This document shows, one piece after another, positions 53,825 to 59,099 of a stretch of 64,000 nt of DNA. Under the pieces are notes generated by a model. That model had not been told where the DNA came from. It did no database searches and saw nothing but the letters and a program-made list of their open reading frames with translations. The stretch spans positions 62,001-126,000 of the forward strand of contig JAJSPD010000089.1 in assembly GCA_021307315.1 (NCBI GenBank), given 5' to 3'. Numbering within the stretch: position 1 is the stretch's first letter; each line of letters begins with the position of its first letter. The stretch is from Bisporella sp. PMI_857 (Eukaryota; Ascomycota; Leotiomycetes; Helotiales; Helotiaceae). Both the position numbers and the translations under genes were made by a program.

Positions 53825-54961
53825 ATGGACATGCCTTACTTAGAACAGCCTGAATTACACACCAAAGCACAATATCGAGCTGCCCTATTGCAATATCCTG
53901 GAAATTTCAAAGAGGCTTTACAACAAGCTAAAAACGACCCCAAAAAGACACTTTTTGGCGCTGCCCACGGAATTCCAAGCCCATATGTGACAAAGGTACG
54001 AGCTTAGGAATGCAACATCTATTTCAATGGAGCACTTGGGCCATAATAACTGAACTAGATCATCGCTTCTACGCGACCAGACTTTATCTGGATCGACGTT
54101 GAGCATGGCATATTCGACCGCCGGACCCTTTACGAGTAAGTTGTACAAGGACAGATGAAATGACATATAACAATCAAACTCACCATAATTACCTTACCTC
54201 AGTGCAATTCAAGCCGTGCAGCACCATTCGGAAGGTCACACCATGGCAGTTGTACGGGTCCCAAAACATGACGGGACGGCATTATCGACAGCATTAGAAG
54301 CGGGTGCATCCGCCATAATAATTCCCCACTGCGAAAGCGCAGAAGAAGTTCGAGCCTTCGTAAAAGAAGCCTACTTCCGTAAGTCAGTTTCCAGTTCATA
54401 GATATCAGAAGCAGAATTGTTAATTATTAGTTGCTTAGCTCCTCTCGGCCAGCGTTCATACAGCCCCTGGACGTTCACGCCTGGGATATCAGATGCATCA
54501 CTGTACGGAAACGATCCATTCAATTTCAAATCCTCGAACTATCATATTACCCTCATTCCACAGATTGAAACCGTAAAGGGTGTTGAGAATCTAGATGAGA
54601 TAGCTGCTGTCGCGGAAGTCGGTGCTCTTATGTTTGGGCCAGTCGATTATATGGCCGACGCAGGGATACCTCTTAAAGTAAGCAAGGTGTTCCCTCCAGA
54701 CCTGGTGGCTGCTATTGAGAAATTCGCTACTGCAGGCGAAAAGCACAGCAAGCCGTTGTTTGGGTATGTAATTGATACTTCTCATTACCAACGTGATTAG
54801 TAGCTGACTTAATAAGTGCTGCTATGGTTCCTGAAATGATTCCGCTTTTGATCAAGCAAGGCTATAGGGCGATTTGCGTTGGCTTTGACACCGCAGGTCT
54901 TGCGAGGTTCTTTAAAAGTGGTTTAGATGCTGCTAAGGAACTCGCACAGCAAGTAGATTGA
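53825..54961 (+). CDS. HpcH/HpaI aldolase, macrophomate-synthase/CghB-like
   Basis: Five exons keep phase: 53825-53995, 54059-54135, 54203-54378, 54439-54763 and 54817-54961, giving about 297 residues. The family motifs are FGAAHGIPS, PDFIWIDVEHGIFD, QHHSEGHTMAVVRVPKHD, AIIIPHCES, SYSPWTF, IPQIETVKGVEN and MFGPVDYMAD. These follow macrophomate synthase closely and keep the Arg, His, Glu and Asp expected for pyruvate-enolate and Mg2+ binding. Relatives in fungal clusters either decarboxylate oxaloacetate and add pyruvate enolate to pyrones (macrophomate synthase) or join pyruvates to give a precursor of 4-hydroxy-4-methylglutamate (CghB, Sch 210972). The neighbouring aminotransferase supports the amino-acid route; both are inference. 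Confidence 0.9.
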
Positions 54962-55702
54962 GGAGTACAACCTTTTCAATTCATATCGGCCTGGCCGAGA
55001 TGTATATATCCACTATCGCAAACAGGGTGTGAAAAGAGCCTTCATTTTAGTCACTAGTACTATCTAAGTGGAAATTAAAATTCTGCCTTGCATTTTGGAA
55101 TTGATTTTGTAAATTCAATCAAATTGCCAATTATATTTGGACCTGATTGGCATTACTTAGAATTTATACATTCATATTACTATAATAAGCCCACCCCCAA
55201 TATTTTTGAATTAGTTTTGTAGATAGTTCAACTGATCTAATAGAGAAACGTCATCTTTTTTCATACACCAATAGAACCCTATCTTTCTGGAAAAATCCAA
55301 GAGTTGAGTCATCTAAAATCACAGTAAATGAAGAGGTTGTTACAGACATTCCATTATCCCAAATACTTTCTAGATTCTAAGATCAAACAACTTCGATTGA
55401 AGATCGCTTGAAGGATGTCTTCTCCTTCGGGTTATGAGGTGAAATTTGGTTAGACATTTATTTCATATTCGCGTAGTTATAAATCTAATATCTATGCTAT
55501 GCATTCCGAACGTCTTGGAAGCAATCCGAGTTCGTTCCCTTTTTGACCCCTTAGACCGTCTGCTGTCTACACTTATCGAGCTGACTAAGGAGAGGTATAT
55601 ATCGAACTAATAAGCAGTATGTCTCGAATCCTCATTTGAATAAATTTGTATTCATATGATTCTGTGATTCGCGGGACTCTACTCTAAGTACCAATTTACT
55701 TC
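54962..55702. other. AT-rich convergent intergenic region
   Basis: About 740 bp between convergent genes; no gene or repeat recognised. Confidence 0.4.
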
Positions 55703-57145: not shown

Positions 57146-57832
57146 GATGGTACACTGAGTATATTTGCTTACACCACAGACTTGTGAAACTTTTGATAAT
57201 AAACAATAAGAAAGTTTTGCCAGGCGGTTGCACGGCAATGCTTGGTTTGAATGCCTGAGATTATTTCACGTGACTCTGCCTCCCCGGCTCGGTCTCCGGC
57301 CAGGGATTTATTAAACGATGCCACTCTTAGGAAATACACTATCTCCCTCAACTGTGGATTCGCTATGACTTTTAGCGAGCCAGTTAGCCTGCGCAACGAG
57401 CACTTTTTATGCCATTTAAAGTAATTATGTGCCTAAGGCGTGGTCATTATTCCCGGTTGGGGAGATAGAACTCGGCTAACTTATCACACTAACTTTTGTC
57501 GGACGAGGAGCACCTTTATCGGAACACTTAGCAACATTACAGAACCACACGGGCTCGGAAGATGGAGTCGCCGAAGTGGATAAGTCTCCGACTAGGTATC
57601 AAGAGAATATTATAGGGGTATATGATTCAATACACTGGGTCATAGTATCATTTCAAAGGTGCGTGTATATTGAGATGCGAAGATTTCCCTCTTCGCAAGT
57701 ATATATTTGCTCTTACAGCCAGCTATGTCCGACTAGCCACTGCTATCACGCTAACCATCGCTCACAGATTATAGCTCGAAACGGCTGAACCAACCAACGG
57801 AACTCCCATCTCCGGGTCAGAGTAAGAACGCA
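57146..57832. promoter_or_regulatory. Divergent promoter with clustered TCGGA motifs
   Basis: 687 bp between the aminotransferase and the TauD-type dioxygenase. TCGGA occurs at 57499-57503, 57519-57523 and 57555-57559, with inverted TCCGA at 57587-57591: four sites in 93 bp. Confidence 0.5.
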
Positions 57833-59099
57833 ATGGCCCCATCAGCCATAGAGAAGGACTCCGCGGACGAAGCCACAGCTTCGAAGGCCTTGTTGGAACT
57901 TCCCGAGCCTACTCTCGCTCGCATGACGAAAGCTGGTATCAATCTCTCAAACGGGTATCCTTGGTGCCCAGTATCAAAGGAACCTGTTTACTGGCAGGAT
58001 AGATCCAAGCTTCGTACCGAGCCATGGAAGTACAATGACCCAGCTGCTCGAGCTGATAAATCTAAATCAGCTCTATTGTCGGCTGCCGCCAAAGTGACTG
58101 ATATCACTACGCATATAGGAACCGAGATTGAAGGTCTCCAGCTAAAGGATCTGACAGATCAACAGAGAGATGAACTAGCATTGCTCATTGCGGAGCGAAG
58201 TGTCGTGGTCCTCCGAGAACAAGACCTTTCACCACAGCAGCAGCTCGAGCTCGGCCGTTATTATGGAGTGGTTGATGTGCATGTAAGTAGTCATCCTTTG
58301 AAATCGTTAGCAACTTAACGGAATAACTAAACGACCTCAAGTCTACCGCTCCTCAGGTACCAGGAAACCCAGGTGCCGCCGTCATCTGGCCCAGCTGGGG
58401 GGTCCAGAATCTGCCCGCAATTTTCGGTTTCCGTAAGGGATTCGGCTCAAGCTTCTGGCATAGCGACTCATCTCATGAACCGCAGCCACCTGGTTACACA
58501 CATCTCCACAACGATACTGCACCAAGTGTGGGCGGCGATACTCTGTGGGCTAGCGGTTATGCTGCGTATGAGAAGCTCTCGCCTGACTTCCGTAAGATGA
58601 TCGACGGCAAGCTTGTTGCGATCCGATCCTATGGTACGTTCGTCGACAAAGATAACCCAGGAGGAGCTCAAAAGCACATTGAACGCGTTCAACCACTCGT
58701 CCGTGTACATCCGGTCACTGGCTGGAAAACATTGTTCGTTAGTCGGGCATTCACTCATCGTATTATTGGACTCGACAAGGCTGAAAGTGACTTAATTTTG
58801 AACTATCTATTTGATATATTCGAAAAGAATCTTGATATTCAAGTCCGTATTAGGTGGGGTAACGGCACAAGTGTTTTGTGGGACAACAGGTGGGATTTCT
58901 GATTTCTTTATAACTGAGAGGAGCTGACATGAATAGGTCTACAATTCATAATGCCACCTGGGACTATAATGGCAAGCAACCTAGACATGGCACATTGGTT
59001 CTATCATTTGCAGAGATACCCTACTTTGATCCTGTGGCTCCAACCAGGCGTGAAGCATTAGGACTTTTAGACAACAGCGAGCAGGAGCCAGCAGAATGA
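57833..59099 (+). CDS. TauD-type Fe(II)/2-oxoglutarate dioxygenase
   Basis: Three exons keep phase: 57833-58282, 58342-58889 and 58937-59099, about 386 residues. The iron ligands are visible as FWHSDSSHE (H-x-D) and the distal His in STIHNATWDY; the 2-oxoglutarate Arg follows in PRHGTLV. Family motifs GTEIEGLQLKDL and RSVVVLREQDLS fit fungal alpha-ketoglutarate-dependent taurine/sulfonate dioxygenase-like proteins. In primary metabolism these release sulfite; in clusters they hydroxylate or desaturate intermediates. Its divergent pairing with the aminotransferase suggests it belongs to the pathway. The acceptor of intron 1 could also be the CAG at 58354-58356. Confidence 0.88.

What the first reader, a model, noticed from the sequence alone, without database searches (positions are those of the whole stretch)
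53825..59099. Macrophomate-synthase/CghB-like aldolase next to an aminotransferase and a TauD dioxygenase beside a PKS-NRPS
The HpcH/HpaI protein keeps the macrophomate-synthase motif set, including the His in PHCES and Arg in VRVPKHD. It lies directly beside an aspartate-type aminotransferase and a 2-oxoglutarate dioxygenase. In Sch 210972 biosynthesis CghB makes the oxo-acid precursor of 4-hydroxy-4-methylglutamate and the transaminase was not identified. Here the aminotransferase may be supplied in the cluster. Alternatively the pair could generate oxaloacetate for a macrophomate-synthase-like cycloaddition, giving the cluster two pericyclase-type enzymes.
Basis: partly seen in the sequence, partly recalled or inferred. 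Interest (0 to 1): 0.85.

Follow-up and report, generated by a model that had tools for sequence, protein, structure and literature searches.

The report
Retuned aldolase–aminotransferase pair beside PKS-NRPS
A filamentous fungus keeps, beside a large enzyme that joins a polyketide chain to an amino acid, an aldolase and an aminotransferase that probably make an unusual amino acid for it; such pairs are known, but here both enzymes show changed active sites, which suggests a different building block.

Summary
Three intact, intron-containing genes lie at the stated coordinates: an HpcH/HpaI aldolase (297 aa, 59% identical to macrophomate synthase, MPS), an aspartate-type aminotransferase (409 aa) and a TauD-type dioxygenase (386 aa), 2.6 kb past a ten-exon PKS-NRPS. 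The genome is inferred to be Bisporella sp. PMI_857.

Aldolase plus transaminase is already listed as the hallmark of the Sch210972 subclade of fungal PKS-NRPS clusters (PMC7421883). The MPS cycloaddition reading is disfavoured: the motifs cited are common in the family, Tyr169 is Phe, and the protein lies outside the clade that carries Tyr169. Oxaloacetate supply is disfavoured more strongly: the aminotransferase has Gly where the other 118 of 118 aligned homologues, apart from its Phlyctema vagabunda partner, have Arg292, the residue that holds the side-chain carboxylate of Asp and 2-oxoglutarate; the PLP-site residues checked are kept. The aldolase has lineage-specific changes next to its metal ligands, and the A-domain code, read by eye, has no basic residue apart from an assumed Lys517.

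Best reading: a precursor pair that makes a gamma-hydroxy-alpha-amino acid, probably retuned away from canonical dicarboxylates.

The parts
38438..51180 (+). PKS-NRPS hybrid (4059 aa, 10 exons): KS-AT-DH-MT-KR-ACP-C-A-T-R; A domain about residues 3060-3600
   Evidence: Gene model; Pfam on seven of its open pieces, (KS, AT, DH, MT, KR, C, A, T, R; no ER match in these; the ACP is read from its motif); C-domain HHINMDG and R-domain FVSTA/YSASK present; KS 80% and A 51-53% identical to Aspergillus niger P0340 and Penicillium freii P0355
52421..53200 (-). Short-chain dehydrogenase/reductase, divergent from the aldolase
   Evidence: PF23441, E 4.3e-58; a relative lies in the same divergent order beside the aldolase relic on contig C96
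53825..54961 (+). HpcH/HpaI aldolase, MPS-like (exons 53825-53995, 54059-54135, 54203-54378, 54439-54763, 54817-54961)
55703..57145 (-). Aspartate-type (subfamily I-alpha) aminotransferase with Gly at the Arg292 position (residue 290 of this protein)
57833..59099 (+). TauD-type Fe(II)/2-oxoglutarate dioxygenase, 2-His-1-Asp motif kept; link to the pathway uncertain
14680..16038 (+). Lipocalin-type Diels-Alderase family protein, distant from Phm7, Fsa2 and CghA; about 22 kb from the PKS-NRPS; membership in the same pathway open
   Evidence: PF24137 3.3e-26, PF22903 1.1e-17; PDB hits 5.1e-14 to 3.8e-10
13109..14469 (-). LovC-like medium-chain reductase, candidate trans-enoyl reductase, divergent from the Diels-Alderase gene; membership open
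   Evidence: LovC E 1.7e-22

Best explanation
The aldolase and the aminotransferase form a two-step precursor pathway for the neighbouring PKS-NRPS. The aldolase uses Mg2+ and pyruvate (or oxaloacetate, decarboxylated) to make a pyruvate enolate and adds it to a carbonyl acceptor, giving a 4-hydroxy-2-oxo acid. The aminotransferase converts this into a gamma-hydroxy-alpha-amino acid, which the A domain activates and the C domain joins to the polyketide. Logically this is the CghB route of Sch 210972, but both enzymes of this lineage are altered at substrate-facing or metal-adjacent positions, so the product is probably not the canonical 4-hydroxy-4-methylglutamate. Shown: gene structures, homology, residue states. 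Inferred: catalysis, substrate, membership in one pathway. The dioxygenase and the SDR may tailor the amino acid or the product; that is a guess. The confidence covers the precursor-pair reading whatever the exact side chain; the first rival (canonical side chain) is a sub-case of it.
For: Intact genes with catalytic residues kept. Aldolase inside the fungal MPS-like family (53 rows, 98/98) and apart from two Mycena rows and four distant rows. The genome has at least four other AAT loci (C210, C218 and two on C274), each with Arg at position 292, so a housekeeping role for this copy is unnecessary. Gly at position 292 in the window protein and P0121, Arg in the other 118 of 118 aligned, is the only change shared by the two at a position that is the same in all the others. 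Asp15 to Gly is also shared (117 of 118 others Asp). Aldolase substitutions shared with P. vagabunda: Glu115 (0 of 86 others), Val210 beside metal ligand Asp211 (0 of 86), Ala278 (0 of 86), Tyr149 (1 of 86), Thr186 beside metal ligand Glu185 (2 of 86). P. vagabunda's aldolase and aminotransferase lie on a contig of the same length, 3,239,063 bp. Precedent for the pathway: PMC8902786 (passage), PMC7421883 (section 10 and passages). Role of Arg292: PMC4094517 (passage), PMC6411801 (passage).
Against: No expression data, product or assay. No CghB, CghG or TasS sequence was obtained, so the nearest characterised relatives were not compared directly. The shared contig length is about 8% of a published P. 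vagabunda assembly (38.34 Mb, PMC12613959, passage; that the contig belongs to that assembly is assumed), so it is weak evidence of linkage. It is the only length shared between the 120 listed aldolases and the 120 listed aminotransferases, so the link is seen in two genomes only; both lists are capped. Loss of Arg292 also removes the usual grip on glutamate as amino donor, and the donor is unexplained. No shared promoter motif stood out. The decayed second aldolase on C96 has no AAT or PKS-NRPS match beside it.
Confidence: 0.6

Rival explanations
1. Sub-case of the main reading: the pair makes 4-hydroxy-4-methyl-L-glutamate exactly as in Sch 210972 biosynthesis, and the changes at the active sites are neutral or help hold the branched substrate.
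For: Same gene logic as the Sch210972 subclade, aldolase + transaminase; family-level catalytic residues kept; Phe169 is usual in the non-MPS aldolases (36 of 44 tree rows outside the MPS clade), including Humicola and Achaetomium, with Trp in Parathielavia (that these are Chaetomiaceae like the CghB source is recalled).
Against: Arg292, which holds the side-chain carboxylate of dicarboxylic substrates, is Gly; the A-domain code, read by eye, has no basic pocket residue; the aldolase changes listed are in 0 to 2 of 86 other rows.
Confidence: 0.27
2. The aldolase is a true MPS-like enzyme: the aminotransferase turns aspartate into oxaloacetate and the aldolase uses it in a cycloaddition with a 2-pyrone or diene, giving the cluster two pericyclases.
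For: 59% identity to MPS, Arg101 and the metal ligands kept; a Diels-Alderase-family gene lies in the window.
Against: Tyr169 is Phe; Tyr169 is in 14 of 15 rows of the MPS clade and 0 of 44 rows outside it, and the window protein is outside; the one MPS-clade row with Phe (Phaeosphaeria) shows that Phe alone does not decide. The aminotransferase lacks the aspartate side-chain-binding Arg292. No second PKS appeared among the window pieces scanned with Pfam.
Confidence: 0.05
3. The three genes are ordinary primary or catabolic metabolism that happens to lie beside a PKS-NRPS.
For: No shared promoter motif; TauD-type genes are numerous in the genome (30 exon-level matches, the window gene's own three included); a separate AAT + RraA-like + HpcH neighbourhood on C218 looks catabolic.
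Against: The aldolase is in the MPS-like family; the genome has at least four other AAT loci; the altered aminotransferase is kept in a second species on a contig of the same length as the aldolase's.
Confidence: 0.15

Closest known systems
Sch 210972/Sch210971 clusters (cgh of Chaetomium globosum; tas)
   Same: PKS-NRPS with pyruvate-type aldolase, and in the subclade a transaminase; Diels-Alderase CghA and enoyl reductase CghC also in cgh
Macrophomate synthase (PDB 1izc)
   Same: 59% identity; Mg2+ ligands, Asp70, His73, Arg101, His125 kept
   Different: Phe at 169, outside the Tyr169 clade, five lineage-specific substitutions
Cytosolic aspartate aminotransferase (subfamily I-alpha)
   Same: The PLP-site residues checked, and the alpha-carboxylate Arg386
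   Different: Gly at the Arg292 position and Gly at the Asp15 position
Escherichia coli AlaA (PMC4094517, passages seen)
   Same: An aminotransferase that replaces the Arg292 contact and so changes its substrate range
   Different: Not a close relative; AlaA is proposed to use Arg18 of its N-terminal plug, whereas here there is no Arg between residues 6 and 41

Membership tests
HpcH/HpaI, MPS-like fungal aldolases | Full-length homology and metal-site residues Glu185, Asp211 with Asp70/His73/Arg101/His125 | tested here: met
Macrophomate synthase proper | Tyr169 and placement in the MPS clade | tested here: not met
   Phe169; outside the 15-row clade (100/98). Role of Tyr169 in pyrone binding is recalled
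Macrophomate synthase proper | Conversion of 2-pyrone plus oxaloacetate to benzoate | not testable with these tools
   Needs an assay
Aspartate aminotransferase | PLP residues Asn194, Asp222, Tyr225, Lys258, Arg266 and Arg386 | tested here: met
Aspartate aminotransferase | Arg292 for the side-chain carboxylate | tested here: not met
   Gly, as in P0121; the other 118 of 118 aligned homologues have Arg
Sch210972-type (Ib-B) cluster | Aldolase and transaminase genes beside the PKS-NRPS | tested here: met
   definition from PMC7421883; its supplementary tables were not seen
Sch210972-type (Ib-B) cluster | PKS-NRPS falls in the TasS/CghG clade | not tested
   No reference sequence was obtained
Sch210972-type (Ib-B) cluster | A domain activates 4-hydroxy-4-methylglutamate | not testable with these tools
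   Code D-F-W-A-L-G-L-F-I-(K), read by eye against recalled GrsA positions; Lys517 assumed; no basic pocket residue otherwise
Fe(II)/2OG dioxygenase (TauD) | HxD...H facial triad and 2OG Arg | tested here: met
   Alignment to PlaO1 read by eye

The most novel reading that the evidence does not exclude
The aldolase and aminotransferase co-evolved to make a new gamma-hydroxy-alpha-amino acid with a non-anionic side chain, not 4-hydroxy-4-methylglutamate, which the PKS-NRPS builds into a new tetramic acid-type product. Arg292 loss in the aminotransferase would be a readable sequence marker for such precursor pathways.
Probability: 0.35. Interest if true: 0.65.

Novelty: new variant of a known kind. 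Interest (0 to 1): 0.48.

Why it matters
A review describes the Sch 210972 transamination as done by an enzyme encoded outside the cluster (PMC8902786, passage), while a genome-mining study lists a transaminase in the subclade (PMC7421883). This locus gives a defined candidate with an intact PLP site and one clear specificity change. It makes the step testable with two purified enzymes and one A domain, and the Arg292 position offers a possible marker for aminotransferases recruited to make unusual amino acids.

Tried and rejected
Rejected: MPS-type cycloaddition and oxaloacetate supply. Rejected as discriminating evidence: the PHCES and VRVPKHD motifs, common in the family. Promoter motif search over 12 upstream regions against 100 shuffles: 105 spaced patterns, two of them reached by no shuffle, which is about what so many trials would give; 9-11-mers no better than shuffles; longest shared strings 12 bases. 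PKS-NRPS homologue search: large multi-module NRPSs, mostly bacterial, filled the list; two fungal PKS-NRPS relatives (P0340, P0355) were recognised among 120 listed of 1600, so clade placement was not possible. A second AAT/HpcH neighbourhood on C218 carries an RraA-like gene and looks catabolic. Literature: 10 searches; two searches returned nothing, nothing relevant. Papers were seen as passages, except sections 10 of PMC7421883 and 4 of PMC8159843; supplements were not seen. Sato 2015, Kakule 2015 and the MPS structure paper were not read (recalled or seen as citations). Structure prediction was not used: spliced proteins of the window are not accepted there, and models give no coordinates for distances.

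Full report
What is there. Bases 53825-59099 hold three complete genes with GT-AG introns and no internal stops: an HpcH/HpaI aldolase, an aspartate-type aminotransferase on the other strand, and a TauD-type dioxygenase. An SDR (52421-53200) lies between the aldolase and a ten-exon PKS-NRPS (38438-51180). One PKS intron start (42599) is non-consensus and one acceptor (before 45248) was chosen among four stop-free options because it gives an expected KR motif. The window lies on contig C273 of a 55.6 Mb genome.

The aldolase. It is 59% identical to macrophomate synthase and keeps Asp70, His73, Arg101, His125, Glu185 and Asp211. MPS Tyr169 is Phe here. In a tree of 59 rows (57 of the 120 listed proteins, chosen mostly because they bear a species name, the window protein and MPS), Tyr169 occurs in 14 of 15 rows of one clade that holds MPS (100/98) and in 0 of 44 rows outside; the window protein is outside, with Phlyctema vagabunda (91%) and a second copy from its own genome. 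The tree is drawn from the midpoint and the program warns that some distant rows have long branches; several inner forks are weak. That Tyr169 contacts the pyrone is recalled, not read. Compared with 86 other family members, the window protein and its P. vagabunda partner share Glu115 (0 of 86), Val210 (0), Ala278 (0), Tyr149 (1) and Thr186 (2). Positions 186 and 210 adjoin the metal ligands 185 and 211. The 86 leave out P0001, P0078 and the four distant rows P0117-P0120.

The aminotransferase. It matches aspartate aminotransferases throughout (6jpk, E 4.2e-103). Asn194, Asp222, Tyr225, Lys258, Arg266 and Arg386 are kept. At the Arg292 position it has Gly, as does the P. vagabunda protein P0121 (86% identical); the other 118 of 118 aligned homologues have Arg (119 of the 120 listed were aligned, one of 707 aa left out; 7989 matched the query in all, so the rest were not seen). 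The other AAT loci of the genome, at C210, C218 and two places on C274, also have Arg there. Residue numbers follow E. coli/pig AAT, the match to 6jpk being ungapped around this site. Arg292 holds the side-chain carboxylate of aspartate and 2-oxoglutarate (PMC4094517, passage; PMC6411801, passage). Asp15 is also Gly in both proteins against 117 of 118. Against my own reading, the same loss makes glutamate a poor donor, and I cannot name the donor.

The acceptor. The A-domain code, read by eye from the sequences against recalled gramicidin synthetase positions, is D-F-W-A-L-G-L-F-I-(K). It has no basic pocket residue apart from the assumed Lys. This would be unusual for an acidic amino acid, but fungal codes are poorly charted (recalled) and CghG was not available. 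The two fungal PKS-NRPS relatives seen (A. niger P0340, P. freii P0355) share 80% in the KS but 51-53% in the A domain, and their code differs.

Linkage. In P. vagabunda the aldolase and aminotransferase homologues lie on contigs of the same length (3,239,063 bp), the only length shared by the two capped lists of 120. If the contig belongs to the published assembly (13 scaffolds, 38.34 Mb; PMC12613959, passage), that is about an 8% chance event. In the own genome a second MPS-like copy on C96 lies beside an SDR relative in the same divergent order. It has a stop in exon 2, a one-base gap in exon 4 and no Arg101 when aligned to the window exons, so it is a relic. No AAT or PKS-NRPS match was found on C96. 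A Diels-Alderase-family gene and a LovC-like reductase lie 22-25 kb upstream of the PKS-NRPS; whether they belong is open.

Prior art. PMC7421883 (section 10 and passages) lists aldolase and transaminase as key enzymes of the Sch210972 subclade, which holds 20 hybrids; which of the 20 carry a transaminase gene I did not see. PMC8902786 (passage) says the transaminase of the CghB route is proposed to lie outside the cluster. None of the listings and passages I saw mentions loss of Arg292 in such a transaminase; most subscription papers are not in the library.

Verdict. An aldolase-aminotransferase precursor pair of a known kind, in a variant whose two enzymes have lineage-specific changes at substrate-facing or metal-adjacent sites. 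The most useful new fact is the Arg292-to-Gly change in an otherwise complete aminotransferase, held in two species.

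Noticed in passing
own genome C96:9206-10296 (L041/L042) and C96:7967-8919: A decayed second copy of the MPS-like aldolase beside an SDR relative, same divergent order as in the window; the copy shares Glu115, Thr186 and Ala278 with the window protein.
   Followed up: partly
own genome C218:278020-283748 (L025, L026): Another AAT gene lies about 4 kb from an HpcH/HpaI fragment, with an RraA-like gene between them; a possible catabolic locus.
   Followed up: partly
window 28905-31015: Berberine-bridge-type FAD oxidase pieces (BBE E 3.8e-9), a possible further tailoring or cyclising enzyme.
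   Followed up: no
window 60745-61215: Possible transcription factor on the - strand (Fungal_trans, E 0.0035, under the curated cut-off), near the dioxygenase.
   Followed up: no
own genome C261:59180-60454: Closest relative of the window dioxygenase in the genome (59-67% over two pieces).
   Followed up: no
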